In this document: positions 1,281 through 39,096 of the stretch, piece after piece
Numbering within the stretch: position 1 is the stretch's first letter
Layout of the letters: every line of letters begins with the position of its first letter
Assembly (NCBI GenBank): GCA_019752115.1
Contig: JAIEMN010000063.1
Span: 1 to 39,096 of the forward strand
Origin: Gemmatimonadaceae bacterium
GTDB lineage: Bacteria > Gemmatimonadota > Gemmatimonadetes > Gemmatimonadales > Gemmatimonadaceae
Length of the DNA stretch: 39,096 bases
Direction: 5' to 3'
Notes under the pieces: generated by a model
Told to the model about the DNA's origin: nothing
The model's database searches: none
The model's input: the letters and a program-made list of their open reading frames with translations, nothing else
Made by a program: the position numbers and the translations under genes

Positions 1281-1395
1281 AACCCCTGAGAGGTCAGGGG
1301 GGAGAACGTCAGGGGGACGAGCTCAGGACTGCCCAAGGCGACGCTGTCCTGACTCCTCCCCCCTGACGTTCTGCCCCCTGACCTCTCGGGGGTGA
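1281..1395. repeat. Long intergenic palindrome, family I copy 1
   Basis: The left arm (1281-1332) and right arm (1343-1395) are near-perfect inverse complements around a loop of about 10 nt. Each arm carries two sub-repeats containing TCAGGGGG. A second copy of the same family lies at 2287-2399, on the other side of the isomerase-like gene. This copy sits between divergent genes, so a terminator role is unlikely here. It could form a very stable cruciform or a transcript hairpin. No transposase or flanking target duplication is evident. Confidence 0.85.
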
Positions 1396-1438
1396 CGAAT
1401 CCGCCACCCGCTCGGATCTGACCGTAAGTTCCTCCCCT

Positions 1439-2278
1439 ATGAACCGTCGCCACTTCCTCCTCCTCTCCGGTGCGGCCCTTGCCGCCCGGCGCCTTTCGGC
1501 GGCCTCGCTCGCGAGCGCCGGCAAACTCGATCGCATTGGCCTCGAGCTCTACGCCGTGCGCAAGGCGATGCGCGCGGACCCCGAGCGCACCCTCGCCGCG
1601 ATCCGCGCGATCGGCTACACCGATGTGGAGCTTCTCTGGAGCTTCAAGAACTTCGATCGCTCGGTGAAGCAGGTGAAGGACGCCCTCAAGCAGACCGGCC
1701 TCAAGGCGCCGTCGGCGCACATGGCGCCAGAAACGATTCTCTCCGGCTGGGAGGGCAAGCTCGCCGAGGCGAAGGAGCTGGGGCATCAGTATCTGATCGT
1801 GCCCAGTCTGCCGAGCGAGGCGAATACGTCGATCGCGGCGTGGAAGCTGTGGGCCCAGCGCTTCAACGCGGCCGGTGAGGAGGCGCGCCGTGCCGGCATC
1901 TGGCTCGCGCTGCACAACGAGCCCAATCACGAGAAGAAGCTCCAGGGCGAGCACCCGCTCGAGGTGTTCCTCGCCGAGACCGATCCCAAGTATGTCCGCT
2001 TCCAGCTCGACGTCGGCAACATGATCGCCGGCGGTGGCGACCCGATGGCATTCTTTGCGAAGCACAAGGATCGGTGCTGGAGCTTTCACATCAAGGACAT
2101 CGTGCCGGGTACGGCGAAGGACACCGAGCTGGGGAAGGGCTCGTTTGACCTGAAATCGTTCCTGTCGCAGGTGCCGGATTTGGGGAAGAAGCCGTGTTAT
2201 GTGGAGCAGGAGGGGCCGGTGGACGAAATGGCCAGTGCGAAGGCGAACTTTGAGTACTTGAAAGGGCTGAGCTGGTAG
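1439..2278 (+). CDS. Tat-exported sugar phosphate isomerase/epimerase-like TIM-barrel protein
   Basis: This is a 279-residue protein of the xylose-isomerase-like TIM-barrel (AP endonuclease 2) superfamily. The N-terminus, NRRHFLLLSG followed by an Ala-rich stretch, looks like a twin-arginine export signal, so the enzyme probably folds before export to the periplasm. Barrel strands and metal-site-like acids and histidines are seen in LALHNEPNHE, FQLDVGNM, SFHIKDI and YVEQEGP, in the order expected for this fold. Length fits the family. Such secreted members often act on sugars or inositols, but no substrate can be assigned. The gene stands alone between a divergent peptidase and a convergent SDR gene and is flanked on both sides by copies of the same long palindrome. 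Confidence 0.85.
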   Translation: MNRRHFLLLSGAALAARRLSAASLASAGKLDRIGLELYAVRKAMRADPERTLAAIRAIGYTDVELLWSFKNFDRSVKQVKDALKQTGLKAPSAHMAPETILSGWEGKLAEAKELGHQYLIVPSLPSEANTSIAAWKLWAQRFNAAGEEARRAGIWLALHNEPNHEKKLQGEHPLEVFLAETDPKYVRFQLDVGNMIAGGGDPMAFFAKHKDRCWSFHIKDIVPGTAKDTELGKGSFDLKSFLSQVPDLGKKPCYVEQEGPVDEMASAKANFEYLKGLSW

Positions 2279-2286
2279 AACGAACG

Positions 2287-2399
2287 GCGGAACCCCCGAG
2301 AGCTCAGGCGGGAGAACGTCAGGGGGAGAGCTCAGGACCGCGTGCAGTCCTGAGCTCTCCCCCCTGAAATTCTTCCCCCTGAGCTCTCGGGGGTTCCGC
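2287..2399. repeat. Long intergenic palindrome, family I copy 2
   Basis: The arms are about 2287-2340 and 2345-2399 and pair almost perfectly. They start from GGAACCCCCGAGAGCTCAG on the left, which is mirrored at the right end. The sequence is clearly related to the element at 1281-1395, with the same sub-repeats AGAACGTCAGGGGG and GAGCTCAGGAC. Arm differences between the two copies are largely compensated within each copy. It fills the gap between two convergent genes, where it could act as a bidirectional terminator, although no T-tract follows. Confidence 0.87.
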
Positions 2400-2406
2400 T
2401 GTTCAC

Positions 2407-3975
2407 CTACCAGTCGGTCTCGCGATAATCCTTGAGAAACTTGCCCCAGATGTGCTCCCCGGTATTAATCCCATCGATAATGGGGTCCACAATCCGCGCC
2501 GCCCCGTCCACGATATCGAGCGGCGGATGGAAGCGGTGCTCTTCCACCTTGCGCGCGGCGATGTGCACGGGGTCTTCATCCGTCACCCAGCCCGTGTCCA
2601 CGGCATTCATGTGAATGCCGTCGTGCCAGTAGTCGGCGGCTGAGGTGCGCGTCATCATGTTGAGCGCGGCCTTGGCCATGTTCGTGTGCGGGTGGCGTGT
2701 CGTCTTGAACTTCCGGTAGAACTGCCCTTCCACCGCGCTCACGTTCACGATGTGCTTGTCGCGGTTTGGCGTGCGCAGCATGAGCGGCTTGAGGCGCGCA
2801 TTGATGAGGAATGGCGCCACCGCGTTCACCAGCTGCACTTCCAGCAGTTCCACGCTCGGCACTTCGTGCATCAGCAGACGCCACGAGTTGCGCTCGCGGA
2901 GATCGACCTGCTGGAGATCCTGGTCGAGCCGCCCCTCGGGGAAGAGGTGCGCGTTGTCCTGATGCTCGTCGGCCAGGAGCGCTACCTGACTCAGCTCGGC
3001 GGCATGCGTGATGCCCGCGACGCGCTCGAGTTCACGGGGCAGGGTGGCCGGCGTGAGCATCTCGTCTTCGCGCTTGACGCCGGCTTCGGGGAGCATGTGA
3101 TAACCGCGCACCCCTTCGTACGCCCCCAGGAGCTTGCGCGCGTTGGCGGGCATGTCGGCGAGCGAGGCGCGCTCGAGGTCCATCATGTGCTTGTAGAAGT
3201 CGGGCGGGCGCCGGACGGTCTGACAGGCATTGTTCACGATGAAGTCGAGGCGCTCGTGCGTCTCCATCAGGTGATGACAGAACGCTTCGACGCTGGGCGT
3301 GTGGCGCAGGTCGAGCCCGAAGATCTCGAGGCGATGCCCCCACTGTTCGAAATCGGGCTCGCTGGCGTAGCGCTGCGCCGAGTCGCGCGGGAAGCGCGTG
3401 GTGACGATGAGGTGCGCGCCGGCGCGCAGCAGCTTGATGCCGGCCTGATAGCCGATCTTGACGCGGCCACCGGTGAGCAGCGCGACACGCCCGGTCAGAT
3501 CGGCCAGCTCGGTGCGCTTCCGATAGTTGAACTCGGCGCACGTCGGGCACAGCTGATCGTAGAAGTGGTGGATGACCGTGTACTCCTGCTTGCACACGTA
3601 GCAGTGCTGCGCCTCGAGCGCCTCGCGGAACTCGGGCTCGTCCACCGTGATCTGGTCGTCCGACCCGGGCGGCAGGTAGTTCGGCGTCGTGAAGACCGTC
3701 TGGCGACGCAGGCGGCGGATCCCCGTCTCCTGCAGCTGGTTCTCGGCTTCCTTGAGCTTCTCCGTCCGCTCGGCCTTCTTCTGCCGCTTGGTCGCCTTCA
3801 CCATCTGCCGGCGCAGGATCGCATCCGGGCGCGAGACCTCGCCGGCGGCCTTGAGCAGACGCGTGCGCTGGTCTTCGGGGATCGCGAGAAGGTTCGCGCG
3901 GTCGGCCGCCAGGCGCTCAAGGAGCGCCGTGGCGGCGGCGATTTCGGAGGGGGTGAGGTCGGGCGTGTCGGACAT
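2407..3975 (-). CDS. Zinc-ribbon short-chain dehydrogenase/reductase (SDR) family protein with atypical active site
   Basis: This 522-residue protein is about twice the size of a classical SDR. Residues 1-120 are charged and helical. A likely zinc ribbon follows, with Cys125/Cys128 (CYVC) and Cys143/Cys146 (CPTC). The Rossmann domain starts near residue 160 with TGGRVKIG (168-175) as the NAD(P)-binding glycine motif, and NNACQ at 248-252 matches the NNAG element. The usual catalytic Ser is Ser413 (NVSAVEG). The YxxxK motif reads TNMAK (431-435), so Thr replaces the catalytic Tyr while Lys435 remains. It may bind NAD(P) yet use different chemistry, or be a structural or regulatory protein. It is convergent with the isomerase-like gene, and a 70-bp perfect palindrome lies upstream of its start. 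Confidence 0.8.
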   Translation of the reverse strand: MSDTPDLTPSEIAAATALLERLAADRANLLAIPEDQRTRLLKAAGEVSRPDAILRRQMVKATKRQKKAERTEKLKEAENQLQETGIRRLRRQTVFTTPNYLPPGSDDQITVDEPEFREALEAQHCYVCKQEYTVIHHFYDQLCPTCAEFNYRKRTELADLTGRVALLTGGRVKIGYQAGIKLLRAGAHLIVTTRFPRDSAQRYASEPDFEQWGHRLEIFGLDLRHTPSVEAFCHHLMETHERLDFIVNNACQTVRRPPDFYKHMMDLERASLADMPANARKLLGAYEGVRGYHMLPEAGVKREDEMLTPATLPRELERVAGITHAAELSQVALLADEHQDNAHLFPEGRLDQDLQQVDLRERNSWRLLMHEVPSVELLEVQLVNAVAPFLINARLKPLMLRTPNRDKHIVNVSAVEGQFYRKFKTTRHPHTNMAKAALNMMTRTSAADYWHDGIHMNAVDTGWVTDEDPVHIAARKVEEHRFHPPLDIVDGAARIVDPIIDGINTGEHIWGKFLKDYRETDW

Positions 3976-4025
3976 AGCCTTGAAAGATAGCTAGGTCCGG
4001 GAGGGGAGCAGGTTTGTGACTCGTT

Positions 4026-4095
4026 AACCCCCAACCCTAAGACCCCAAACCCCAAACTGATCAGTTTGGGGTTTGGGGTCTTAGGGTTGGGGGTT
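4026..4095. repeat. Perfect 70-bp palindrome, G-rich (family II)
   Basis: Every base from 4026 to 4060 pairs with its mirror in 4061-4095. There is no mismatch and no loop, and the centre is TGATCA. The right arm has runs of three to five G separated by short T-rich spacers (GGGGTTTGGGGT), so one strand could also form a G-quadruplex. It lies between two minus-strand genes, 6 bp after the stop of the small gene at 4102 and upstream of the SDR start. The core of 26 bases at 4055-4080 recurs exactly at 34517-34542. Confidence 0.95.
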
Positions 4096-4101
4096 CTTGG
4101 G

Positions 4102-4407
4102 TTACTCCCCGAATGCGTCCCCCGGATTCCTCGGCAGGCGCCAGTACCACCAGTGCACATCCTTGTCCCAGTGCTCGGCCGCCGCATTGTCGGGGCCCCA
4201 GACGCAGCCGCCGGCGGGGTAGGATGCCTTCACGAAGCGGGCGTCGAGCTCGGCGAGCTCCGCGCTGGGTGGGTGCTGCGCGAGCTCGTGGCGCACATCG
4301 AGATCGTTCAGATAATCATCGAAGGTGAGCGGGTACCCACGCTCGACATCTTCCACCGTGCGGGCCCAGCTGGCGAGCAATTCGTCGTGCCGATGTTCGA
4401 GCGTCAT
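4102..4407 (-). CDS. Small hypothetical protein, candidate immunity partner of the upstream toxin-like protein
   Basis: This is a 101-residue acidic protein with no signal peptide or membrane segment, so it is presumably cytoplasmic. Visible traits are a helical N-terminal half (LTFDDYLNDLDVRHELAQ), a conserved-looking Trp-rich stretch (DVHWWYWRLP) near the C-terminus and several Asp/Glu patches. I cannot assign it to a named family. It starts 17 bp after the stop of the BECR-domain gene on the same strand, so the two are almost certainly cotranscribed. A small acidic protein directly downstream of a nuclease toxin domain is the typical arrangement for an immunity protein; that role is inferred from position, size and charge. 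A 70-bp palindrome lies 6 bp beyond its stop and could end the transcript. Confidence 0.72.
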   Translation of the reverse strand: MTLEHRHDELLASWARTVEDVERGYPLTFDDYLNDLDVRHELAQHPPSAELAELDARFVKASYPAGGCVWGPDNAAAEHWDKDVHWWYWRLPRNPGDAFGE

Positions 4408-4424
4408 GGCGAGTGGGGCGGGGC

Positions 4425-4907
4425 TCAGCGTGGGACGCGGCGGGCCTGACGGCGGAAGTAGTCCTCGCCGTCATTGGGTTTGAAGAACGTGCGGATCGTG
4501 CCGTCGGGGTCGTACGCAATGAAGGCGCCGGTCTTCTTGTCGAAGCGGTTCACGACGCCGTCGAGGGGGCGGACGAGTTCGAGGATGTCGGGACCGGCCG
4601 GCGCATCGCGCAGGGCCTGGGCCATGGCCAGATACGCCTCCTTCGTCGGCGCATCGAACTCCTGACCGTGCTTGGCAAAGTGCTCGGCGAGGCGCTCGGC
4701 GTTACGAAATCCGACGGTCGCGCCTCGCGAGGGCGCGTTGGCGGTGGATGTGGCGGCTGGCGCCGCCTCGGTTGGATTCGCGGAGGCGGCGCCTTCGGCG
4801 GCCGCCGCGGAGGGGGACTCGGCGGGGCGGCGTGGGTTGCAGACCAGCCACGTCGCGGCCACGAAGGCCAGGAACGCGAACACGAAGGAGCGGGTGGCGC
4901 GATTCAT
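4425..4907 (-). CDS. Membrane-anchored protein with C-terminal BECR-type (Barnase-EndoU-ColicinE5/D-RelE) nuclease toxin-like domain
   Basis: From ATG at 4907 the protein has 160 residues. Residues 8-23 are hydrophobic and act as a signal anchor or signal peptide; WLVC is not a proper lipobox. Residues 28-62 are an Ala/Pro/Ser-rich linker. Residues 65-155 match, in my recognition, the C-terminal RNase-like domain of polymorphic toxins: HFAKHGQEF (His76, His80), a Tyr-rich helix, RFDKKTGAF (121-129), DGTIRTFFKP (135-144) and a final DYF (149-151). The His, Arg139/Thr140 and Tyr150 are plausible active-site residues. The upstream in-frame start at 4970 would add a non-signal-like extension, so 4907 is preferred. 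It is divergent from tesB and lies directly before the small gene at 4102-4407. The nuclease role is inferred from family resemblance. Confidence 0.72.
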   Translation of the reverse strand: MNRATRSFVFAFLAFVAATWLVCNPRRPAESPSAAAAEGAASANPTEAAPAATSTANAPSRGATVGFRNAERLAEHFAKHGQEFDAPTKEAYLAMAQALRDAPAGPDILELVRPLDGVVNRFDKKTGAFIAYDPDGTIRTFFKPNDGEDYFRRQARRVPR

Positions 4908-4981
4908 GGCCACAACCCTACGAGTCCCAACGGCTGGGCACAACCGGCCACGCCGCTGGGTCGGCGACACATATTTCAGTC

Positions 4982-5836
4982 ATGAGCATTGTCAAAGCGC
5001 TGGTGGAGCTGCTCGAGCTCGAGCAGCTCGAGATGAACATCTATCGCGGACAGAACCGCGACCTTGGCACCGGGCGCGTGTACGGCGGGCAGGTGTTTGC
5101 CCAGGCGCTGGTGGCGGCGCGGCGCACGGTGAGCGAGCCGCGCGAGGCGCACTCGGTGCACGGGTACTTCCTGCGCGCCGGCGACCTCAAGGCGCCCATC
5201 GTGTTCTTTGTCGATCGCCCGCGCGACGGCGGCACGTTCACCTCGCGCCGCGTCACCGCCATTCAGCATGGCGAGGCGATCTTCCATCTCTCGGCGAGCT
5301 TCCAGATCAGCGAGCCCGGGCTGGACCATCAGGCGTGGCCCATGCCGGACGTCCCCGATCCGGATTCGCTCAAGCCCGAGCTCGAGCAGATCCGCGAAAA
5401 GGCCGAGCGCTTGCCGCCCGAGCTGCGCGAGGTGCTCACGCAGGACCGGCCGATCGACTTCCGCAGCAGCCACTCGCACGTGCCCGGCAGCGAGCATGGC
5501 GAACCGCAGCGTTTCGCGTGGTTCCGCGTGCAGGACACGCTCCCGGACGACCTGATCACGCATCAGGCCGTGCTCGCGTACGCCAGCGATTACGGGCTGC
5601 TGCCGACGTCGCTGCTGCCGCATGGGGTGTCCTATCGCGACCCGCGACTGCAGCTGGCGAGCCTCGACCACACCCTCTGGATGCATCGCCCCTTCCGCGC
5701 CGACGAGTGGCTGTTGTACGTGATGGACAGCCCCACCGCCGCCGGCGCCCGCGGGTTCACCAGAGGTCAGGTGTACACCAAGCAGGGCCAGCTTGTGGCG
5801 AGCGTCGCGCAAGAGGGCCTCATCCGCCTTCGGTAG
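4982..5836 (+). CDS. tesB: Acyl-CoA thioesterase II
   Basis: This is a 284-residue double-hotdog protein, matching TesB in length. It hydrolyses acyl-CoA to free fatty acid and CoA in the cytoplasm. The N-terminal hotdog includes RVYGGQVFAQAL and HSVHGYFLRAGD, the typical opening of the family. The catalytic Asp-Thr-Gln triad of TesB is present as Asp203 (ASDYG), Thr231 (SLDHTLWMH) and Gln277 (AQEGLIR). The start has no strong Shine-Dalgarno but is the only ATG in the right place. The gene is divergent from the toxin-like gene 74 bp away and is followed by a long palindrome. It seems to be a single-gene unit. Confidence 0.96.
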   Translation: MSIVKALVELLELEQLEMNIYRGQNRDLGTGRVYGGQVFAQALVAARRTVSEPREAHSVHGYFLRAGDLKAPIVFFVDRPRDGGTFTSRRVTAIQHGEAIFHLSASFQISEPGLDHQAWPMPDVPDPDSLKPELEQIREKAERLPPELREVLTQDRPIDFRSSHSHVPGSEHGEPQRFAWFRVQDTLPDDLITHQAVLAYASDYGLLPTSLLPHGVSYRDPRLQLASLDHTLWMHRPFRADEWLLYVMDSPTAAGARGFTRGQVYTKQGQLVASVAQEGLIRLR

Positions 5837-5868
5837 TCCGACGTCCCGCGCCCTGTAGTCTGACGTCA

Positions 5869-5981
5869 GCGCCCGCGGGACGAGCGCCCGTGCAGGCCGA
5901 GGTCTCCCGGCTTCGGAATCGCCGCAGGCGATTGCCGAACCCGGGAGACGCGGCCGAAACGGGCGTTCGTCCCACGGGCGC
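5869..5981. repeat. Long intergenic imperfect palindrome
   Basis: The left arm (5869-5924) and right arm (5926-5981) pair over about 56 nt with a handful of mismatches. Matching blocks include GCGCCCG, GGACGA, CGCCCGT, GGCCG, TCTCCCGG and TTCGG. It lies between the codirectional genes tesB and the YdeI-like gene. There is no T-tract. Its sequence is unrelated to the other palindromes in the window, although the architecture is the same. Confidence 0.85.
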
Positions 5982-6044
5982 TTGCTCAGCCCACCCCCAA
6001 CGCGCAGCTTCGCCGAGAGCCACGACCACAAGGAGACGAGCCAG

Positions 6045-6653
6045 GTGGGCACGAGAGACCCGCGCGTCGACGCGTACATCCAGAAGAGCCAACCCTTTGC
6101 GCAGGAGATCCTGTCGTACCTCCGGGAGCTCGTGCACGTAACCGTCCCCGACGTACAGGAGACGATGAAGTGGAGTTTCCCCCACTTCGACTACAAGGGG
6201 ATCTTCTGCTCGATGGCCAGCTTCAAGGCGCACTGCGCGTTCGGCTTCTGGTTGCAGAAGGAGGTCGTGGGCGAGGTGGCCGAGGAAGGGATGGGGAGCT
6301 TCGGCAAGATCACGAGCATCAAGGACCTGCCCAGCAAGACCAAGCTCAAGGCGTATCTCAAGAAGGCCAAGGCGCTCAACGACGACGGCGTGAAGCGCGC
6401 GGCGCCGATGCAGAAGAAGCCGAGCGCCGCGAAGCCCATCGAGATCCCGCCGGCGTTCGCGAAGGCGCTGGCCCGGCATCCGCAGTCCAGAAAGCACTTC
6501 GACGCCATGAGCCCCTCGCATCGCCGGGAGTACTGCGAGTGGATCGCCGGAGCCAAGCAGGAGGCCACGCGCGAACGACGCATCGAGAAGGCGATCGAGC
6601 AGCTGGCCGAAGGGAAGTCGCAGAACTGGAAGTACGAATCGAAGCAGGCGTAG
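6045..6653 (+). CDS. YdeI/OmpD-associated family protein (DUF1801 plus OmdA-like C-terminus)
   Basis: Residues 1-115 form a DUF1801-type domain (SYLRELVHVTVPDVQETMKWSFPHFDYKG), and residues 135-200 form the bacteriocin-protection YdeI/OmdA helix (FAKALARHPQSRKHFDAMSPSHRREYCEWI), ending in a Lys-rich tail. The GTG at 6045 is chosen because AAGGAG at 6030-6034 lies 10 nt before it; this gives 202 residues. The upstream TTG at 5982 would run straight out of the palindrome. Members are small cytoplasmic proteins of uncertain function, linked in a few species to resistance to antimicrobial peptides or bacteriocins. The gene precedes two regulatory-like secreted proteins, but with a 22-bp gap and no clear functional link. 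Confidence 0.88.
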   Translation: MGTRDPRVDAYIQKSQPFAQEILSYLRELVHVTVPDVQETMKWSFPHFDYKGIFCSMASFKAHCAFGFWLQKEVVGEVAEEGMGSFGKITSIKDLPSKTKLKAYLKKAKALNDDGVKRAAPMQKKPSAAKPIEIPPAFAKALARHPQSRKHFDAMSPSHRREYCEWIAGAKQEATRERRIEKAIEQLAEGKSQNWKYESKQA

Positions 6654-6675
6654 CAGACCCAATCCAGGACGGACA

Positions 6676-9495: not shown

Positions 9496-9512
9496 GCTGA
9501 TCGTCGATCAGC
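9496..9512. terminator. Short perfect hairpin between convergent genes
   Basis: GCTGATCG (9496-9503) and CGATCAGC (9505-9512) form an 8-bp stem around a single T, so in vivo it would open to a small loop or act as a cruciform. It overlaps the stop codon of the minus-strand hydrolase gene and follows the plus-strand stop by 0 bp. A bidirectional termination role is plausible, but there is no T-tract. Confidence 0.5.
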
Positions 9513-10485: not shown

Positions 10486-10508
10486 GCCTGAAAAGTAACT
10501 GCCGCAAA

Positions 10509-10574
10509 GGATCACGAAGAGCCAGAAGGCCACGAAGCAGTCAGTGCTTCGTGGCCTTCAGATCCTTCGTGTCC
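10509..10574. repeat. Intergenic palindrome between two hydrolase genes
   Basis: The left arm (10509-10539) and right arm (10545-10574) pair with a 5-nt loop; the central 16 bp (GAAGGCCACGAAGCA and mirror) are perfect, with small slips further out. The arms contain repeated CACGAAG units. It lies between two minus-strand genes. It may end transcription of the upstream dienelactone-hydrolase gene. Confidence 0.85.
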
Positions 10575-10598
10575 TCAGTTCGGCTGTTTCACAGCGCG

Positions 10599-11450: not shown

Positions 11451-11481
11451 GGTCTCAGGCGAAGAAGGCGGAGCAGGGTCG

Positions 11482-12474: not shown

Positions 12475-12480
12475 AAGATC

Positions 12481-12519
12481 CCGCCGGGGACAATCCGGCG
12501 GAAGCGGTCGCCTTGTCCC
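12481..12519. promoter_or_regulatory. Overlapping inverted repeats in a divergent promoter region
   Basis: CCGCCGG (12481-12487) pairs with CCGGCGG (12495-12501), and an overlapping pair GGGACAA (12487-12493) and TTGTCCC (12513-12519) is also perfect. They lie in the 77-bp gap between the divergent dehydratase and DUF5916 genes. They could form operator half-sites or alternative hairpins. The role is inferred. Confidence 0.4.
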
Positions 12520-12551
12520 AGCGTCTTGGGGCGGTTAGCCGTTGTCTCACG

Positions 12552-14744: not shown

Positions 14745-14749
14745 GAAAC

Positions 14750-14829
14750 CCGGGGGCGACGCAGGGCCCCCGAGGGTACGCCACCGAACCGTTACGGGGC
14801 GTCGTCGGCTTCGTTACGCCACCGACGCC
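14750..14829. terminator. Two hairpins after the DUF5916 gene
   Basis: GGGGGC near 14752 pairs with GCCCCC near 14766-14772, just 6 bp after the DUF5916 stop. GGCGTCG (14798-14804) pairs with CGACGCC (14823-14829). They lie between codirectional genes and may separate DUF5916 transcription from that of the receptor gene. No T-tract is seen. Confidence 0.45.
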
Positions 14830-14843
14830 GAGCCGTCACACAC

Positions 14844-14886: not shown

Positions 14887-14889
14887 AGC

Positions 14890-20108: not shown

Positions 20109-20213
20109 ATGGAGAGGCGAGAGGCGAGTGGGAGCTGGGGACCTGAGCAGGAGTGGTGAGGCTCACCCCTCACACGCTGATCTCAAACTCCCACTCGCCT
20201 CTCGCTTCTCCAT
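20109..20213. repeat. Long intergenic palindrome with an extra third half-copy
   Basis: The left arm (20109-20160) and right arm (20162-20213) pair, perfectly over the outer 26 bp except one base (GGCGAGAGGCGAGTGGGAG and mirror) and less well near the centre. A further copy of the right-arm core (CTCCCACTCGCCTCTC) follows at about 20228-20244. Material next to the ispE start is mirrored at about 20215-20252. It lies between two codirectional minus-strand genes, upstream of ispE. Confidence 0.82.
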
Positions 20214-20269
20214 GGAAACCCCTCTCCACTCCCACTCGCCTCTCACCGCTCCATCAAACCCGATCAAGA

Positions 20270-22696: not shown

Positions 22697-22710
22697 GCTG
22701 GACAGCGCGA

Positions 22711-23537: not shown

Positions 23538-23590
23538 GTCACCCGGGCGACGCGCCCGGGCCGGCGGCGTCGGAGGCTTCGGCCCCTGAC

Positions 23591-24451: not shown

Positions 24452-24468
24452 CCCTACTTCATTCCGGC

Positions 24469-25179: not shown

Positions 25180-25215
25180 CCGGCGTTTTCTACTTCGTCT
25201 CTTTTCGGCATCGGC

Positions 25216-30649: not shown

Positions 30650-30657
30650 TATTCGGG

Positions 30658-31938: not shown

Positions 31939-31963
31939 GCGGCGCGGTGAGCACGCAGTGGCC

Positions 31964-34522
31964 ATGAAGGCAAAACGGGCGCGCTCGAGCACGAGCGAAC
32001 CGATCGGCGAGGCGCGGCTGTCCACCAAGGCGGCCGCGTCGATTCGCAGCACCATTCGCCTGCACGGCGGCAACGAAGTCTGCTTCGTGTGCGGCGTGGA
32101 TGAAGACGGCACGATCATCAGCGCGCGCAAGGTTGCGGCCGGTGATGTGCAGAGTGTGCTCGCGCTGCCGGGGTGCGCCGAGCGCGGCGAACTGCTGCTG
32201 CACAACCATCCGAGCGGGGAGCTCACACCCAGCGACGCCGACATGGAAGTGGCGTATCGCTTCCACGGCAACGGCGTGGGCTTTGGCATCGTGGACAACG
32301 ATGCGACGCGGGTCTACATCGTGGCCGAGGTGCCCAAGGGCAAGGTCCTCACGCCGGTTGATCCCGATGTGGTGGATGTGACGCTCGGGCCGTACGGCCT
32401 CGTGGCGCAGGCCATGCGGCAGTTGCACGGGGCGCGCGATTACGAAGATCGCCCGGCGCAGCGCGCGATGGCGGCGGCGGTGACCGACACCTTCAACGAT
32501 GGCGGCGTGGCGCTGCTCGAAGCCGGCACCGGCGTCGGCAAGTCGCTCGGCTATCTCGTGCCCGCGCTCCGCTGGGCGGCCGCAAACGGCGAGCGCACGA
32601 TCGTGAGTACCGCGACGATCACGCTGCAGGAGCAGCTGGTCACCAAGGACCTCCCGTTCCTGCAGAAGGCGCTGAGTGATCAGGAGGTGCGGTTCGCGCT
32701 GCTCAAGGGGTGGCGGAACTATCTGTGCCTCTATCGCCTGGAGCAGGCCACCGGGGCTGGCGCGGCGCTCTTCGAGAATGACGCGAGCGCCGAAGTGGAG
32801 CGGCTGCGCACATGGGCGGAGAAGACCACCGACGGCTCGCTCGCCGATTTGCCCGATCCCCCACGCCCCGATGTGTGGGACGAAGTCTCCGCCGAGCCCG
32901 ATCTCTGCGGGCGGCTCAAGTGCGAGTTCTACGCCAAGTGCTTCCTCTTCAAGGCGCGGCGCGAAGCGGCGGTGGCCGATGTGGTGGTGGTGAACCATCA
33001 CCTGCTGCTGAGTGACGTCGCCGTGCGGCGTCAGGTGCAGAACTGGGATGATGCGGCGGTGCTCCCGGCATACAAGCGGCTGGTGATCGACGAAGGGCAT
33101 CATCTCGAGGAAGCGGCCGGGTCGCACCTTGGGAGTTCGATCACGCGACGTGCCTTGGCGCGGCTCTTCAATCGGCTGGAGCGGCGCGGCAAGGGGCTGT
33201 TGCCGGCGCTCGCGGCGAAGCTGGGCGGCATGAACGACCTGCTCGCGGTGGCGAGTCTCGATCTCGTGCGCGAGCGGTTGTTCTCGAGCACGCTCACCGC
33301 GCGCGATCGGACGCAGCTGCTCTTTGAGCTGCTGGGTGCGGTGCTCGAGATGCACAGCGGCCCCGTCATGCGTCTCACCGAGGACTTCCAGCAGCACCAG
33401 CTCTGGATGAACGGCATCGAGCGCGCGTTGGGGGAGCTGCTCACGGAGATCGACGCGCTCGCGCAGGGGCTGCAGGTGGTGCAGCAGCGCCTGGAGAGCG
33501 ACGAGAAGCGTGCCGAGGAGATGGCGCCGTTCCTTGGGGAAGTGCGCGCGGTGATCCGGCGGCTGCAGGGAGCGGGCGACTCGCTCAACAAGGGGCTCCG
33601 CCCACCGGAGAAGGGCCCCGATGTGGTGCGCTGGATGGAGTTCCAGGGCAAGCCCACACCGAACGAGCGCAACATCGCGGTGCACTGCGTACCGCTCGAC
33701 CTGGCGCCGGTCCTGCGCGAGGATCTGTTCGGGCGCGTCGAGACCACCGTGGTGACGAGTGCGACGCTGGCGACCCACGGGGGCTTCGACTTCTTGCAGC
33801 AGCGCCTCGGGCTCGATGCACGCGAAGCGCCGACGCGCACGGCGGTGTTTCCGAGTCCGTTCGACTATCCGCGACAGGCGTTACTCGTGGTGCCGACGGA
33901 TTTGCCGGCGCCCAACGAGAACGCCGCTGAGCACTTCGCGCAGGTGTGCCGCCATCTGCGCGATCTCATGACGGCCAGCGACGGCGGGCTCTTTGCGCTG
34001 TTCACGAGCCATCGCGACGTGCGCGAGATGGCGGCGTGGCTACGCGGCCCGGGGCAGGGCGCGAGCTGGCCCCTGCTGGTGCACGGCGAGGAGCCGCGCG
34101 ATGTGTTGCTGCAGCGCTTCCGCGACGCCGGCCGCGCGGTACTGCTCGGCACGGCGACGTTCTGGGAAGGCGTGGATGTGCCGGGCGACGCGCTGCGCGG
34201 GCTGCTGATTGCGAAGCTGCCATTCCGCGTCCCCACCGAGCCCATTGTCGCCGCGCAGTGCGAGGCGATCGAAGCCCGCGGCGGGAATGCGTTCGGCGAG
34301 TTCATGCTCCCGCACGCGTCGCTCCGCCTCAAGCAGGGGTTCGGGCGGTTGATCCGCACCGCAACCGACCGCGGCGTGGTGGTGCTGAGTGATCCGCGCG
34401 TCATGACCAAGCGGTACGGGCGCGAGCTGCTGGACGGGCTGCCGCCGGCCAAGCGGGTGGTGGGAGCGTGGGGGGAGGTGCGGGGGGAAGTGTCAGCGTT
34501 CTATCGGGGGCGGCGTAACTGA
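31964..34522 (+). CDS. JAMM/Prok-JAB metalloprotease domain fused to a DinG-type Fe-S superfamily 2 helicase
   Basis: The protein has 852 residues. Residues 18-135 form a JAMM domain with all metal-site residues: Glu38 (NEVCF), His80 and His82 (LLLHNHPSG), Ser90 and Asp93, in the exact HxHx7SxxD spacing. Residues 160-850 form an XPD/DinG-like 5'-3' DNA helicase: Walker A EAGTGVGKS (186-194), four cluster cysteines Cys255, Cys315, Cys320 and Cys326, the DEGH box (376-379), TSATL, and QGFGRLIR near the end. DinG unwinds R-loops and damaged DNA; classical Gram-positive DinG has an exonuclease in place of JAMM. A GTG six bases upstream is another possible start. The TGA stop lies within a palindrome's AACTGATCAGT core. 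Confidence 0.92.
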   Translation: MKAKRARSSTSEPIGEARLSTKAAASIRSTIRLHGGNEVCFVCGVDEDGTIISARKVAAGDVQSVLALPGCAERGELLLHNHPSGELTPSDADMEVAYRFHGNGVGFGIVDNDATRVYIVAEVPKGKVLTPVDPDVVDVTLGPYGLVAQAMRQLHGARDYEDRPAQRAMAAAVTDTFNDGGVALLEAGTGVGKSLGYLVPALRWAAANGERTIVSTATITLQEQLVTKDLPFLQKALSDQEVRFALLKGWRNYLCLYRLEQATGAGAALFENDASAEVERLRTWAEKTTDGSLADLPDPPRPDVWDEVSAEPDLCGRLKCEFYAKCFLFKARREAAVADVVVVNHHLLLSDVAVRRQVQNWDDAAVLPAYKRLVIDEGHHLEEAAGSHLGSSITRRALARLFNRLERRGKGLLPALAAKLGGMNDLLAVASLDLVRERLFSSTLTARDRTQLLFELLGAVLEMHSGPVMRLTEDFQQHQLWMNGIERALGELLTEIDALAQGLQVVQQRLESDEKRAEEMAPFLGEVRAVIRRLQGAGDSLNKGLRPPEKGPDVVRWMEFQGKPTPNERNIAVHCVPLDLAPVLREDLFGRVETTVVTSATLATHGGFDFLQQRLGLDAREAPTRTAVFPSPFDYPRQALLVVPTDLPAPNENAAEHFAQVCRHLRDLMTASDGGLFALFTSHRDVREMAAWLRGPGQGASWPLLVHGEEPRDVLLQRFRDAGRAVLLGTATFWEGVDVPGDALRGLLIAKLPFRVPTEPIVAAQCEAIEARGGNAFGEFMLPHASLRLKQGFGRLIRTATDRGVVVLSDPRVMTKRYGRELLDGLPPAKRVVGAWGEVRGEVSAFYRGRRN

Positions 34523-34646
34523 TCAGTTTGGGGTTTGGGGTCGTTGGTTTGGGGTTGCTGGGTTTCGGACTAGCGACCTGTCGTGCCAATTACCCGTGAA
34601 CACCGAACCCCAGAACACCACACCCCGAACCGATCTGTTCAAACCC
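34517..34646. repeat. Imperfect intergenic palindrome, family II copy 2
   Basis: It begins with AACTGATCAGT at 34517, inside the helicase stop region, and shares 26 exact bases (34517-34542) with the perfect palindrome at 4026-4095. G-rich material (to about 34568) is loosely mirrored by C-rich material at 34602-34644, separated by about 33 nt. Pairing is much poorer than in the other copies, so it may be a decayed element. It ends 4 bp before the next start codon. Confidence 0.7.
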
Positions 34647-34650
34647 ACCC

Positions 34651-35277
34651 ATGCCGCTTAGCCAGCTCCCCTCCAAGATCATTTGCGTCGGCAAGAACTA
34701 CCTCGACCACGCCAAGGAAATGGGTGGGGAGGTCCCGCCGTATCCGCTCCTCTTTTTCAAACCGGCGTCCAGTCTGATCGCGGACGGGGAATCCATCGTG
34801 CTCCACCCGGTGTCGAACCACATCGACTACGAAGGGGAGATCGCGTTGGTCATCGGGAAGCGGCTGTCGAAGGCCAAGGATGAAGCGGAAGCGGTGGCGG
34901 CGATCAGTGGCGTGGCGGCGTTCAACGACGTGAGCGCGCGCGACCTGCAGAAGGCCGACGGCCAGTGGGCCCGGGCCAAGGGGCTCGATACCTTCGGGCC
35001 GGTGGGGACCCCGGTGCCGCCGCCGGCGGATTTCGACGCCATCGAGGTCATCACCCGCCTCAACGGCAAGGTCGTGCAGCACGCCAAGGGTGGAGACATG
35101 GCCTACAAGATCCCCTTCCTGGTGCACTACATCAGCCAGTACTTCACGCTGGAGCCGGGCGACCTGATCGCCACCGGGACCCCCTCGGGGGTGGGCCAGA
35201 TCCGGCCCGGGGACGAGGTGGAGGTCGAGCTGGTCGGGTTCAGCCGTATCAAAAATCCGGTCGTCGCGGGCACTTGA
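34651..35277 (+). CDS. Fumarylacetoacetate hydrolase (FAH) family protein
   Basis: This 208-residue single-domain FAH-fold protein is a metal-dependent hydrolase or decarboxylase of 2-oxo acids; close relatives act on acylpyruvates or oxaloacetate, and specificity cannot be read here. Motifs include IICVGKNYLDHAKEMG at the start, the metal-site acids in HIDYEGEIALVIG, the lid and active-site stretch AAFNDVSARDLQ, and GDLIATGTPSGVGQIRPGD near the end. Length fits the short FAH group. The start is preceded by a palindrome; the next gene begins 27 bp after its stop. No catabolic partner is seen. Confidence 0.93.
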   Translation: MPLSQLPSKIICVGKNYLDHAKEMGGEVPPYPLLFFKPASSLIADGESIVLHPVSNHIDYEGEIALVIGKRLSKAKDEAEAVAAISGVAAFNDVSARDLQKADGQWARAKGLDTFGPVGTPVPPPADFDAIEVITRLNGKVVQHAKGGDMAYKIPFLVHYISQYFTLEPGDLIATGTPSGVGQIRPGDEVEVELVGFSRIKNPVVAGT

Positions 35278-35304
35278 CGGCCAAAATCGGGTATCTTTCT
35301 CGAC

Positions 35305-36327
35305 ATGACCGCCTCCCGCCCGCCTGAGGCCCCCAACGGGGGTCTTCCACCGGAGCGCCCAACAGCGCCCCGGCGGCGGGCCGTGGAGGGACTGCCAGAG
35401 CGCAAGCGCCTGTCCCCATCGGTGGCGGCACTCGCCGTGGGCGCGCACATCGCCATCGGCTTCGTGCTGGTGCAGGTGCTCACCTTCGGGCATGGGCTGC
35501 CGGGGTGGCTGCGCTTCGAAAACGAGCGCATGCCCGAGGAGCGGCTTACCTACGTGACCCCCAAAGCGCCGGTCACGCCGCCGCCGGCGCTGCGACAGGT
35601 GCCGCGTCGGGTGGACGAGCGCCTGCAGCCCCCCGCGCCCACGGTGGCGCCGGCGGGCGTACCGGAAGCACCGCCCGAGGTGAAGCCGCTGAGCCCCCGC
35701 GATACGGGGAGTGGCGGCACCGCCGGCAACGGCGTTGGCGCGCTCGATCCGAACGTGCGCGGCGTGCGTCCGGGGTATACCGACGAACGCGTGTGGCGCG
35801 GCACCACCGGCAACGGTGGTGATGGCAGCGGCGGCGCGGCGCGCCGCGGCGATCGCGCCGACAACCTCGATTCGATCATGGCCAGCGCCATCATGGGCGC
35901 CGCCGATTCGCTCGACTCCATTGCGCGCGCGTCGGGCAAGTACGGCCGGCAGCCGGGCGACTGGACCAAGACCGACAAGAACGGCCGCAAGTGGGGCTGG
36001 GACCAGCAGGGCATCCGCCTCGGCAAGTACACGCTGCCGAACGCGCTGCTCGCGCTGCTCCCGATGAACGCGGCCACCGCGGCGGGCATGTCCGCCAACC
36101 CGGTGGGCATGGCGGCCGGCGCGCGCATCAGCGCGGCCAGTGCCGACATTCAGCGCATGGCCGCCCGCGGCATGGGCGACGCCGAGTTCAAGCGCATCGT
36201 GAAGGAAATGGACGCGAAGCACGACACGCAGCGCCGCGAGCGTCTGCGCGCGCCGAGCGCGAGCTACGCGGCCCCGCTCAAGAGCGACGGCAAGCCCACG
36301 AGCAACGGGCAGCCCAGCGGGCGCTGA
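35305..36327 (+). CDS. TonB-like single-span protein of unknown function
   Basis: This is a 340-residue protein with the architecture of TonB: a short basic cytoplasmic N-terminus, one membrane span (about 38-60, SVAALAVGAHIAIGFVLVQV), then a Pro-rich stretch (VTPKAPVTPPPALRQVP, then PPAPTVAPAGVPEAPPEV) able to cross the periplasm. The C-terminal half, however, has no recognised TonB domain; it includes a Gly-rich linker (GSGGTAGNGVG), WGWDQQGIRLGKYTLPNALLALLPMN, and a charged helical end. I do not recognise this domain. The next gene, a plug-like secreted protein, starts 6 bp after its stop, which suggests the two act together. Confidence 0.72.
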   Translation: MTASRPPEAPNGGLPPERPTAPRRRAVEGLPERKRLSPSVAALAVGAHIAIGFVLVQVLTFGHGLPGWLRFENERMPEERLTYVTPKAPVTPPPALRQVPRRVDERLQPPAPTVAPAGVPEAPPEVKPLSPRDTGSGGTAGNGVGALDPNVRGVRPGYTDERVWRGTTGNGGDGSGGAARRGDRADNLDSIMASAIMGAADSLDSIARASGKYGRQPGDWTKTDKNGRKWGWDQQGIRLGKYTLPNALLALLPMNAATAAGMSANPVGMAAGARISAASADIQRMAARGMGDAEFKRIVKEMDAKHDTQRRERLRAPSASYAAPLKSDGKPTSNGQPSGR

Positions 36328-36333
36328 GGCACC

Positions 36334-37077
36334 GTGCGCCGACGCGGGTCGTGCGCGTGGCTGGGTCTCGCGAGTGTGATCCCCGCGCTGCTCAGCGCGC
36401 AGACCAGTGTCCTGCGTGGTCGGGTGATCGACGCGCGATCGAAGCGGGCCGTGCCTGCGACCGTGGAGTTCCGCGCGGCCGATACGACCATCGTGCGCGA
36501 GGGGGCATCCACCTACGCGATTCCGGCGTTACCGGCGGGGCGCTTTGAGCTGATCGTGCGCGCGATCGGCTATCAGTCGGTCACCATGCGCGTCGAACTC
36601 GCCGCGAATGACACGGTGGACGCGGATGTCGAACTTGAGCGCATTGCGACCAAACTGGCCAAGGTGCGCACCGACTCGGTGGCGCTTCCGGCCGTGTATG
36701 CGGGGCGACTCGCCGAGTTCGAGGAGCGACGCGCCTTCGGGATCGGGCGTTTTCTCGACTGGACGTTCTTCGCGCAGAACCAGAACCGCGCCCTGTCGTC
36801 ATTGCTCGACGGCCGGTTCGCCAGCCTGCGCGTGAACCGCAAGGGAACGGCCAAGCATCAGTTCACCACCAGTCGCAGCGGCCGGGCCTGTCCACCGCAG
36901 GTGCTGATCAACGGCGTCATCGATGACGAGTATGATCTCTCCCTGCTCGACACCCGCGAAGTGATCGGCTTCGAGTACTACACGCCCACCAACACGCCGC
37001 TCAAGTTCAATCGCACCACGATCGGTCGCGATCGCCCCGGCTCCGCGTGCGGCACGGTGTTGCTCTGGTTGCGCTGA
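36334..37077 (+). CDS. Secreted carboxypeptidase-regulatory-like/plug-like protein (short form)
   Basis: The start is GTG at 36334, 6 bp after the preceding stop; the protein has 247 residues. A signal peptide (about 1-22, ending LLSAQ) is followed by one beta-sandwich (SVLRGRVIDARSKRAVPATV, then AIPALPAGRFELIVRAIGYQSV). Residues 105-247 resemble the plug-like end of the tandem proteins at 6676-9495: AEFEERRAFGIGRF, a putative disulphide Cys pair, and VIGFEYYTPTNTPLKF. Unlike them it has one sandwich only. It is paired with a TonB-like protein. A long palindrome separates it from the convergent gltX. Confidence 0.83.
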   Translation: MRRRGSCAWLGLASVIPALLSAQTSVLRGRVIDARSKRAVPATVEFRAADTTIVREGASTYAIPALPAGRFELIVRAIGYQSVTMRVELAANDTVDADVELERIATKLAKVRTDSVALPAVYAGRLAEFEERRAFGIGRFLDWTFFAQNQNRALSSLLDGRFASLRVNRKGTAKHQFTTSRSGRACPPQVLINGVIDDEYDLSLLDTREVIGFEYYTPTNTPLKFNRTTIGRDRPGSACGTVLLWLR

Positions 37078-37124
37078 AGCGAAGCGCCGTACTGGTGATG
37101 AGGCCGCTGGTACACCGATGAGCA

Positions 37125-37225
37125 CTGTACCTGACCTGCGGAGGGGCGGAGCCGCGGTGCAACGGAGGGACGCCACTGACGTCTCCGTTGCGCCAATGCT
37201 CCGCCCCTCCGCAGGTCAGGCACAG
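37125..37225. repeat. Long intergenic palindrome between convergent genes
   Basis: The left arm (37125-37172) and right arm (37180-37225) are inverse complements over about 46 nt with few mismatches; the outer 28 bp has one (CCTGACCTGCGGAGGGGCGG and mirror). The loop is 7 nt. It lies between the plug-like gene (+) and gltX (-), so it may act as a two-way terminator. Its sequence is unlike the others in this window. Confidence 0.88.
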
Positions 37226-37260
37226 CCCGCTGATCGATTTCGCGCGCTCAGTCGAGCGGG

Positions 37261-38724
37261 CTAAACCGGCGCGCGCAGGTACTCCACCGCCGCCTTGATG
37301 CGCTTGAGGCTCTGCTCGCGCCCCACGTAGAGCAGCACGTCGAAGATGCCCGGGCTCACCGTGAGCCCGGTGAGCGCGACACGGAGCGGCTGGAAGATCT
37401 TGCCCCCCGAAATGCCGCGCTGCTCGGCAAGCGTGCGGAGCGCTTCCTCCATCGCCGCCGGTTCCCACCTGGCGAGGCCCGCGAGGCGCTCGTGGGTGGC
37501 TTCGAGCACATCGGCGGTGGCCGTCGCATCGCGCCACTGCTTGCTCACCGCGTCGGCGTCGTACTCCACGCCGTCGGTGAAGAAGACCTTCGCCTGCGTC
37601 ACGATCTCGTCGGTGAGACGCGCGCGAATGCGCAGGAGCTCCAGCACGCCGCAGAACCACGCGTGGCGGGCCTCCAGGTCCTCGGCGGTCGCAAAGCCCG
37701 CCTTCACCACGAGCGGCGCCACGATGCGCGCCAGTTCGTGAATATCGATCTTCGCGAGGTGCTGCCCGTTCATCCACTCCAGCTTCTTCGTGTCGAACAC
37801 CGCCGCCTTGGCGTGCAGGTTCTTCACATCGAACCGCTGGATCAGCTCCTCGAGGCTGAGCACCTCGACATCATCGCCCGTGCTCCAGCCGAGCAGCGCG
37901 AGGAAGTTGAGCATCGCCTGGGGCAGGAAGCCCTGATGCTGATAGTCGCCCACCGCCGTCGCACCGTGGCGCTTCGACAGCTTCTTGCCGTCGGTGCCGT
38001 GGATCATGGGCACGTGGCCGAACTGCGGCTCCTCGGCGCCGAGGGCTCGGTAGAGCAGGATCTGCTTGGGGGTGTTCGAGATATGGTCGTCGCCGCGCAT
38101 CACGAGCGTGACGCGCGCGGCGATGTCATCGCTCACCACGGCCATGTTGTACACCGGCGTGCCGTCGGAGCGGAGGATGACGAAATCCTCGATGTCCTTG
38201 TTCGGGAAGGAAATCCGCTCGTGCACGAGATCGTGCCACTCGGTGTGCCCCTCGGGGACCTTAAAGCGAATGGCGTACGGCTCGTTGTTGGCGAGCTTCT
38301 GGGCGAGCTCCGCGTCACTATACGTCGCCAGGCTGCGGTCGAAGCGGAACGCCTCGCCCTTGGCCTCGGCCTCGGCGCGCAGCTGCTCGATCACGCTCGC
38401 CGGCGTGAAGTCGCGATACGCCGCGCCGGTCTCGAGCAGGCGGTGCGCGTCGGCATAATGGCGGGCGACGTTCGCGCCCTGGTAGACGACCTCTTCATCC
38501 CACGTGAGGCCGAGCCACTCGAGCCCTTCGAAGATCGCGCGGGTGCTTTCGTCGGTGCTGCGCTGGCGGTCGGTGTCCTCGATACGGAGGAGGAAATCGC
38601 CGTCGTACTTCTTGGCGTAGAGCCAGTTGAAGAGCGCAGTCCGCGCGCCCCCCACATGGAGAAAGCCCGTAGGCGACGGGGCAAAGCGCACACGCGGGCG
38701 CTTCGCAGCAGGCGCTGACGACAT
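37261..38724 (-). CDS. gltX: Glutamyl-tRNA synthetase
   Basis: This 487-residue class I aminoacyl-tRNA synthetase charges tRNA-Glu with glutamate in the cytoplasm. The HIGH motif is FAPSPTGFLHVGGARTALF (His23 region) and the KMSKS motif is KLSKRHG (248-254). The 190-240 region (VYNMAVVSDDIAARVTLVMRGDDH) is typical. The C-terminal anticodon-binding helical domain (residues 320-487) looks complete. Whether it also charges tRNA-Gln cannot be judged here. The start at 38724 leaves a 10-residue Ala/Lys-rich lead. A tRNA-Ser gene lies upstream on the same strand, separated by a T-tailed terminator. Confidence 0.97.
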   Translation of the reverse strand: MSSAPAAKRPRVRFAPSPTGFLHVGGARTALFNWLYAKKYDGDFLLRIEDTDRQRSTDESTRAIFEGLEWLGLTWDEEVVYQGANVARHYADAHRLLETGAAYRDFTPASVIEQLRAEAEAKGEAFRFDRSLATYSDAELAQKLANNEPYAIRFKVPEGHTEWHDLVHERISFPNKDIEDFVILRSDGTPVYNMAVVSDDIAARVTLVMRGDDHISNTPKQILLYRALGAEEPQFGHVPMIHGTDGKKLSKRHGATAVGDYQHQGFLPQAMLNFLALLGWSTGDDVEVLSLEELIQRFDVKNLHAKAAVFDTKKLEWMNGQHLAKIDIHELARIVAPLVVKAGFATAEDLEARHAWFCGVLELLRIRARLTDEIVTQAKVFFTDGVEYDADAVSKQWRDATATADVLEATHERLAGLARWEPAAMEEALRTLAEQRGISGGKIFQPLRVALTGLTVSPGIFDVLLYVGREQSLKRIKAAVEYLRAPV

Positions 38725-38766
38725 ATGAAAACCGACCGAAGGTCAGGGGAAGAGCAGGGGGCAAAT

Positions 38767-38802
38767 AAAACGCGGGTCCGCCGGCTACCCAGCGGACCCG
38801 CG
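38767..38802 (-). terminator. Intrinsic terminator of the tRNA-Ser gene
   Basis: On the minus strand an 11-bp perfect stem (CGCGGGTCCGC, 38792-38802 paired with 38771-38781, loop 10 nt) is followed by TTTTATTT (38763-38770). It starts 4 bp after the tRNA's 3' end. This is the only classic stem plus T-tract terminator I see in the window, and it separates the tRNA from gltX. Confidence 0.9.
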
Positions 38803-38805
38803 GAA

Positions 38806-38895
38806 CGGAGAGAGCGGGATTCGAACCCGCGATAGAGGTTGACCCCCTATGCCGGTTTAGCAAACCGGTGCCTTCAGCCTCTCGGCCATCTCTCC
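38806..38895 (-). tRNA. tRNA-Ser (anticodon GCU)
   Basis: The 90-nt minus-strand gene has a 7-bp acceptor stem (GGAGAGA pairing with TCTCTCC), a D arm with GGCCGAGAGGCTGAAGGC, an anticodon arm CCGGTTTGCTAAACCGG with anticodon GCT, a long variable arm (CATAGGGGGTCAACCTCTATC, read with its stem) typical of serine tRNAs, and the T arm GGGTTCGAATCCC. The discriminator base is G. CCA is not encoded. It decodes AGC and AGU. Confidence 0.97.
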
Positions 38896-39029
38896 AAACC
38901 CCACGCCTTTCAGCTAACGCATTGCAGTGCAACGAGTTGCTGGTGGCGCGCCGCCTTGGCTCGGGGGAGCCGCGACAGATCCACAATGTAGTGGGGGGGG
39001 CGGGGCGGGGGCAACCGTTGGGATGCTGC

Positions 39030-39096
39030 AACTGATCAGTCATGGGTTTCGGGTTCTTGGTCGTGGGTGGTGGGTTACCGCGGTTGAACCCACCAC
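39030..39096. repeat. Family II-like palindrome cut by the right edge
   Basis: The core AACTGATCAGT at 39030-39040 is shared with the elements at 4055 and 34517. It is followed by GGGTTTCGGGTTCTTGG and then GTGGTGGGTT (39067-39076), which is exactly mirrored by AACCCACCAC (39087-39096) at the window's end. The palindrome presumably continues outside. It lies upstream of tRNA-Ser. Confidence 0.7.

What the first reader, a model, noticed from the sequence alone, without database searches (positions are those of the whole stretch)
1281..39096. Many long intergenic palindromes with matching arms but mostly unrelated sequences
At least eight gene junctions carry palindromes with arms of about 30-56 nt (1281-1395, 2287-2399, 4026-4095, 5869-5981, 10509-10574, 20109-20213, 37125-37225, and a truncated one from 39030). 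Arms agree closely within a locus, yet most loci do not resemble each other, and only one has a short A/T tract nearby. They sit between convergent, codirectional and divergent genes, so simple termination does not explain all of them. Recurrent fresh formation, for example by template switching or inverted duplication in intergenic DNA, or strong selection for the hairpin fold, would fit. I know of REP/BIME-type elements, but those share a sequence family.
Basis: partly seen in the sequence, partly recalled or inferred. Interest (0 to 1): 0.72.

Follow-up and report, generated by a model that had tools for sequence, protein, structure and literature searches.

The report
Gene-less copies of protein-coding hairpin elements
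The long palindromes between genes are mostly dispersed, gene-less relatives of small hairpin elements that elsewhere carry one of two poorly understood protein genes between the same repeat arms, and such elements turn up in many bacterial phyla, settled just behind other genes.

Summary
The palindromes are real: 62 of score >=60 in 839 kb of this genome, 0 in one shuffle. They are not unrelated. Those genes encode a four-helix-bundle protein (PF05635, 23S rRNA "IVP") or a GxxExxY PD-(D/E)XK protein (PF13366). Arm-gene-complementary arm holds for 33 of 50 PF05635 loci of relatives, 22 and 21 of 30 loci in a many-phylum sample and 9 of 12 plasmid loci; controls 2 of 485, 1 of 183, 1 of 288. 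Arm words follow the protein family. Palindromes sit 3' of genes: 28 of 41 convergent, 4 of 97 divergent gaps. At one Nostoc plasmid site relatives show an empty gap, a gene-less hairpin and a gene-bearing one. Fresh formation at each locus is not supported. No RAYT was found. Best reading: a REP/RAYT-like arrangement with two other proteins. Mobility by these proteins is inferred; gene number did not predict palindrome density in nine genomes.

The parts
1282..1393 (.). Family A palindrome (arms 51 nt), between divergent genes; gene-bearing relative at G000:C32:138501 (PF05635)
2272..2413 (.). Family A palindrome (core 2287-2399), between convergent genes
4026..4095 (.). Family B palindrome, perfect 35-nt arms, centre TGATCA; gene-bearing relative at G000:C62:23336 (PF05635)
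5868..5982 (.). Singleton palindrome (arms 56 nt); no family member or cognate gene found in the 839 kb
10513..10571 (.). Weaker palindrome with CACGAAG words, the word type seen round GxxExxY genes in other phyla (L395, L398); no own gene matched
20109..20213 (.). Family E palindrome (GAGAGGCGAGAGGCGAGTGGGAG); an extra arm copy lies at 20229-20254; gene-bearing relative at G000:C64:16313 (PF05635)
34517..34564 (.).
37125..37225 (.). Family F palindrome behind gltX (37261-38691, minus); arms match those bracketing the GxxExxY gene at G000:C31:43569
39030..39096 (.). Left part of a family B element, cut by the contig end

Best explanation
The palindromes are gene-less members of a class of small hairpin elements. 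A full element is arm - small gene - complementary arm (448-494 nt in three filled/empty plasmid pairs), the gene encoding either a four-helix-bundle protein (PF05635/TIGR02436) or a GxxExxY PD-(D/E)XK protein (PF13366/TIGR04256). SHOWN: arm families shared between palindromes and gene-bearing loci in this genome; the arm-gene-arm anatomy in many phyla; arm words that go with the protein family; a place just behind stop codons; empty, gene-less and gene-bearing states at one orthologous site. INFERRED: that elements spread by copying into gaps behind genes, replacing some tens of bases, and that the encoded protein acts on its own arm words, also in trans on gene-less copies, as is proposed for RAYTs and REPs. 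Cutting by GxxExxY and hairpin binding by the helical-bundle protein are guesses from sequence and fold.
For: Own genome: flanks of 10 of 15 PF05635/GxxExxY genes match palindrome families that hold 49 of 62 palindromes; other small genes 29 of 179 (p 5e-5). Bracketing arms: PF05635 33 of 50 in relatives; GxxExxY 7 of 32 bracketed and 24 of 32 with any element; many-phylum sample 22 of 30 and 21 of 30; plasmids 9 of 12 plus one just under the threshold. Controls 2 of 485, 1 of 183, 1 of 288. Words: CACAGAG-like pairs in 27 of 30 GxxExxY and 2 of 30 PF05635 flanks of the same genomes. Place. States at one site: Nostoc TraM|hypothetical gap, 42 nt in C057, 486 nt with gene in C052, gene-less hairpin in ATCC 53789. 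Active-site residues E, D, E, K kept in 100, 98, 100 and 100% of 62 GxxExxY proteins.
Against: Gene number does not predict palindrome density over nine genomes (Spearman 0.23, p 0.55; one has 12 genes and none in 100 kb). 5 of 15 own genes and 13 of 62 palindromes have no partner. In the genus GxxExxY genes are more often tailed (13 of 32) than bracketed, and tails are also found on 89 of 660 ordinary genes. Four own gene-family links rest on one side only (C7, C37, C24, C11). Nothing shows that either protein moves DNA.
Confidence: 0.65

Rival explanations
1. Host hairpins: the palindromes are kept by the host as bidirectional terminators or mRNA 3'-end stabilisers, and the small genes are passengers in some of them.
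For: 28 of 41 convergent but 4 of 97 divergent gaps carry one; most begin 3-36 nt behind a stop (40 of 54 distances); strong folds.
Against: 3 of 62 have a T-run; several congeners do without a palindrome behind mnmE (14 of 23 gaps); it does not explain word sets that follow the protein family or gene-bearing copies inside operons. Avoidance of promoters would give the same bias.
Confidence: 0.17
2. Palindromes come first and the two small genes home into the centre of existing palindromes, like a homing gene in a target.
For: Gene and palindrome share arms; gene-less copies outnumber genes.
Against: At the Nostoc site the gene-less and gene-bearing forms differ through most of the arms and loop; arm words depend on the protein family and keep their polarity (23 upstream forward against 2 reversed).
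Confidence: 0.1
3. Fresh formation in each gap by template switching or inverted duplication.
For: Unrelated palindromes in the same gap of relatives; arms made of quasi-repeated words (25 of 61 arms at p<0.05); with all copies counted, arms of a family A locus are slightly closer (p 0.013).
Against: No within-locus excess without two divergent copies and none in the flanks; families of up to 40 places.
Confidence: 0.04
4. Known REP/BIME moved by a RAYT, or MITEs of an insertion sequence.
For: Dispersed extragenic palindromes with many copies per flanking gene.
Against: No PF01797 match in the own genome; the flanked genes are PF05635 and GxxExxY; no target-site duplication seen at the Nostoc site. 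Other transposase families were not searched.
Confidence: 0.04

Closest known systems
REP/BIME/REPIN elements with RAYT transposases (PMC2817692, passages)
   Same: Extragenic palindromes in many copies; a gene flanked by two copies in inverted orientation; several families per genome, each with its own gene.
   Different: Gene is PF05635 or GxxExxY, not a RAYT; arms about 50 nt made of repeated words instead of a short hairpin with a GTAG-type head; no RAYT in this genome.
23S rRNA intervening sequences with S23p/IVP ORF (PMC4990558, passages)
   Same: A PF05635-type gene in the loop of a hairpin with complementary ends; heptamer repeats noted in Coxiella; an older idea cited there that the ORF serves mobility.
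   Different: Here between protein genes, dispersed over the genome, with gene-less copies; cutting by RNase III not examined.
IS1272 stem-loop-replacing transposition (PMC5678879, passages)
   Same: Target sequence is replaced, no duplication.
   Different: IS1272 has a transposase and replaces stem-loops; here I saw spacer bases replaced, and no transposase.
Stem-loop repeat families of 40 bacterial genomes (PMC2267715, abstract and outline)
   Same: Intergenic stem-loop families.
   Different: The abstract names no link to these two proteins; the body was not read.
TAACTGA heptamer repeats (PMC4679880, abstract and outline)
   Same: Short heptamer words in intergenic DNA, patchy over phyla, horizontal spread suspected.
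   Different: Direct repeats, mostly near start codons.

Membership tests
REP/BIME with RAYT | RAYT (PF01797) gene in the genome | tested here: not met
   0 matches in the own genome; 6 of 18 congeners have one
REP/BIME with RAYT | Gene flanked by two inverted copies of the repeat | tested here: met
   Met in form, with other proteins
REP/BIME with RAYT | Dispersed extragenic palindrome in many copies | tested here: met
   Family A 40 places, 62 palindromes in 839 kb
REP/BIME with RAYT | GTAG/CGTC-type head next to the palindrome | not tested
   No scan was made
rRNA intervening sequence | PF05635 ORF in the loop of a long hairpin | tested here: met
   33 of 50 and 22 of 30 loci
rRNA intervening sequence | Inserted in a 23S rRNA helix | tested here: not met
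   Window sites lie between protein genes and Rfam finds only a tRNA in the window; annotated plasmid loci lie between protein genes
rRNA intervening sequence | Excision from RNA by RNase III | not testable with these tools
   needs RNA
MITE of an insertion sequence | Target-site duplication | tested here: not met
   Nostoc site: 42 nt replaced by 486 nt, no duplication seen; one site only was aligned in full
MITE of an insertion sequence | Transposase gene with the same ends | tested here: inconclusive
   Only PF01797 was searched
Intrinsic terminator | T-run after the hairpin | tested here: not met
   3 of 62 on either side
Intrinsic terminator | RNA 3' ends at the site | not testable with these tools
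   needs term-seq

The most novel reading that the evidence does not exclude
Two unrelated small proteins, the four-helix-bundle IVP and the GxxExxY nuclease, are the spreading factors of a so far unnamed, widespread class of hairpin elements that move without a transposase, replace DNA behind stop codons, and leave populations of gene-less palindromes recognised through short protein-specific words. rRNA intervening sequences would be one branch of this class.
Probability: 0.42. Interest if true: 0.92.

Novelty: new variant of a known kind. Interest (0 to 1): 0.82.

Why it matters
If true, it gives a genomic setting and a testable role to two common orphan protein families, explains a recurrent kind of intergenic hairpin in many phyla, suggests where rRNA intervening sequences come from, and adds a counterpart of REP/RAYT with other proteins. 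Palindromes of this kind may also break assemblies: this contig ends inside one.

Tried and rejected
Rfam: only tRNA-Ser in the window. RAYT: none in the own genome. Per-locus arm correction and flank extension: little or no support. Palindrome density against gene number: no correlation. PDB by sequence for GxxExxY: nothing up to E 1. GxxExxY near the CACAGAG pattern loci, sought with a Gemmatimonas-only profile: none in those loci. Terminators with T-runs: few. Literature searches; 'GxxExxY' is in 2 papers and 'PF05635' in 1, and the passages I read (the second GxxExxY paper, PMC12085832, was seen as a listing only) do not make this link. Only open-licence PMC text was searched.

Weak spots and rows left out: palindrome counts use score >=60. 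One search used 23 convergent gaps of at most 400 nt; in two of them the neighbour does not begin like the others. Two bracketed GxxExxY loci (L284, L311) scored 'none' and are added. Several of the 50 PF05635 loci are one site in sister species (for example L333/L334, L337/L361), so they are not independent; L343's gene was probably misread and counts as none. The 48 many-phylum genomes were picked because they hold the CACAGAG pattern, which may favour GxxExxY words. Of 30 plasmid records 12 were fetched (4 of 6 GxxExxY, 8 of 24 PF05635); L466's gene is in two pieces and its end is uncertain. The gene caller is a rough one of my own. argG loci were not read except L290 and L306, which I held already.
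Full report
What is there. In 839,096 bp of the same genome I count 62 palindromes of score >=60, 60 intergenic, 2 partly over a gene edge and none inside genes, against 0 in one dinucleotide shuffle. In the first 439 kb the median arm is 52 nt and the median loop 5.5 nt. The seven measurable window palindromes fold with z from -8.8 to -13.8.

Where they sit. Of gaps of 60 bp or more, 28 of 41 convergent, 27 of 178 co-directional and 4 of 97 divergent carry one (convergent against divergent p 3e-15). In the first 439 kb, 40 of 54 distances from a stop codon to a palindrome edge are 3-36 nt. 3 of 62 have a run of T beside them. They are 3'-end features without the hallmark of intrinsic terminators.

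They are families. Blast clustering gives 18 groups; 12 have two or more members, the largest 15, 9, 8 and 5. Window 1282 and 2287 are family A, 4026 family B, 20109 family E, 37125 family F; 39030 goes with B; 5868 is a singleton. Family A matches 40 places in this genome (75 rows on both strands) and none of 40 relatives, 24 of them congeners. Family B is weakly present in 6 congeners. Neighbouring palindromes share a family somewhat more often than shuffled labels (11 against 5.7, p 0.018). The genus is probably Gemmatimonas: G021 is 4,636,964 bp, which I recall as the length of G. aurantiaca T-27.

Not made on the spot. In family A the arms of one locus agree 83.7% and arms of different loci 84.3% when two divergent copies are left out; with all 25 copies the figures are 83.7 and 81.2, p 0.013. 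Flanks outside the arms are no more complementary within a locus than between loci (26 copies, p 0.86). That speaks against per-locus template switching as the main source.

The lead. By record title the 80 listed include Planctomycetes, Chloroflexi, Acidobacteria, Bacteroidetes, Verrucomicrobia, several proteobacterial classes, Spirochaetes, Cloacimonadota, Aminicenantes, Calditrichaceae, Streptomyces and an archaeon. 62 of 102 matches lie in an inverted repeat, both arms of a palindrome counting. I recalled, without a source, that such words occur near GxxExxY and four-helix-bundle genes, and tested it.

Genes between the arms. This genome has 8 GxxExxY and 7 PF05635 genes. GxxExxY was found in 18 of 19 genomes of the genus and 0 of 12 others of the order. 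Of 32 GxxExxY loci of the genus, 24 have a palindrome at the gene's edge or bracketing arms; 7 are bracketed. Of 50 PF05635 loci (7 own, 31 of congeners, 12 of other genera of the order) 33 are bracketed and 40 have some element. Controls in the own genome: 2 of 485 genes bracketed, both lying between two complete family A palindromes, and 89 of 660 tailed.

Which gene goes with which palindrome. Flanks of 10 of the 15 own genes match palindrome families: A with C32, B with C62, E with C64, fam13 with C16 and fam11 with C11 (PF05635); F with C31, C with C7 and C20:201066, fam8 with C20:201066, fam10 with C37, fam12 and fam15 with C24 (GxxExxY). These families hold 49 of the 62 palindromes. Among 179 other small genes 29 match a family and 4 do so on both sides. 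C7, C37, C24 and C11 are matched on one side only in the rows shown.

Beyond the phylum. In 48 genomes behind the pattern loci, PF05635 occurs in 35 and PF13366 in 38. Of 30 loci each, 22 and 21 are bracketed; controls 1 of 183 genes and 1 of 288 random intervals. Arm words follow the protein: CACAGAG-like pairs in 27 of 30 GxxExxY flanks and in 2 of 30 PF05635 flanks. In the plasmid collection, searched by protein and not by words, the 12 loci fetched of 30 all have arms: 9 bracketed at the threshold, 1 just under it, 2 with an upstream palindrome. Several sit inside operons: fabD-fabG, cas6-cas4, cas10-cmr3.

Gain and loss at one site. In Nostoc plasmids, between a TraM-domain gene and a hypothetical gene, C057 p057_A has 42 nt where C052 has 486 nt with a PF05635 gene between GGGAACAGG arms. 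A second C057 plasmid is also empty, N. edaphicum carries the same gene and arms, and ATCC 53789 has a gene-less hairpin with GGGAAC words. Flank identities C052/C057 are 91.6% and 97.0%. The element starts at the upstream stop codon; spacer bases are lost and no duplication is seen. PCC 7003 against PCC 7002 (448 nt for 32) and N. edaphicum against Calothrix NIES-4105 (494 for 13) are further filled/empty pairs. Anabaena 90 carries a gene with GGTGACAGG arms at a cas6-cas4 gap where Dolichospermum, flanks 97.9 and 99.1% identical, has a different palindrome. In Gemmatimonas 9 of 23 gaps behind mnmE hold palindromes of six unrelated families; the other 14 are 7-135 nt long. Behind argG this genome has a fam13 palindrome, G014 and G017 a GxxExxY gene, and G002 a PF05635 gene, the last by position only.

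How it may work. GxxExxY keeps a full PD-(D/E)XK set (E 100, D 98, E 100, K 100% of 62). Its model (pLDDT 88) is closest to SSO0001, recalled as a Cas4, with lambda exonuclease next; TM-scores are modest and only two matches reach E 0.001. PF05635 has two related solved structures (2gsc, 2rld) and a weak, below-cut-off likeness to DGR Avd (PMC10053308 passages). I infer that each protein works on its own words and serves gene-less copies in trans, and that DNA behind stop codons is replaced, in a way like that reported for IS1272. None of this was observed.

Against. Gene number does not predict palindrome density in nine genomes. Five of fifteen genes and thirteen of sixty-two palindromes remain unmatched. 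A host role at 3' ends is possible as well.

Known kinds. It works like REP/RAYT but is not a member, since the defining RAYT was not found. The PF05635 form has the anatomy of rRNA intervening sequences, outside rRNA; PMC4990558 cites an older idea that their ORF is a mobility component. I found no paper linking either protein to dispersed palindromes in my searches, which cover open-licence text only.

Noticed in passing
window 39030-39096: The contig ends inside a family B palindrome; family A matches also lie close to the start of contigs C51 and C77, so palindromes may break this assembly.
   Followed up: no
C20:135636-135737, window 4026-4095, window 39030: Family B exists in two permutations: AACTGATCAGTT in the centre, or at both ends with a CGCG-type centre, like BIME units in alternate orientation.
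   Followed up: no
C4:43519-43637 and C23:152668-152849: Two palindromes share the outer arm GGTGCTCGCTGCGCTCGCGAG but have unrelated inner arms, a nested or modular build.
   Followed up: no
L311 (G013:C69): A GxxExxY gene bracketed by inverted arms of about 320 nt built from repeated words.
   Followed up: no
L300 (G000:C25) and L346 (G000:C32): The bracketing arms contain GC-rich terminator-like hairpins on both sides of the gene.
   Followed up: no
L296, L297, L329, L348 and other gene-bearing loci, upstream of the gene: A GGTGA/GATGACG-type motif recurs some tens of bases before many of the genes and may be a shared promoter; seen by eye.
   Followed up: no
L482 (Dolichospermum), 732-956: A GTAGGTTGGGTTG..AACCCAACCTAC hairpin occupies the cas6-cas4 gap that holds a PF05635 element in Anabaena 90.
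   Followed up: partly
window 38806-38895: tRNA-Ser (GCT) on the minus strand, the only Rfam hit in the window.
   Followed up: no
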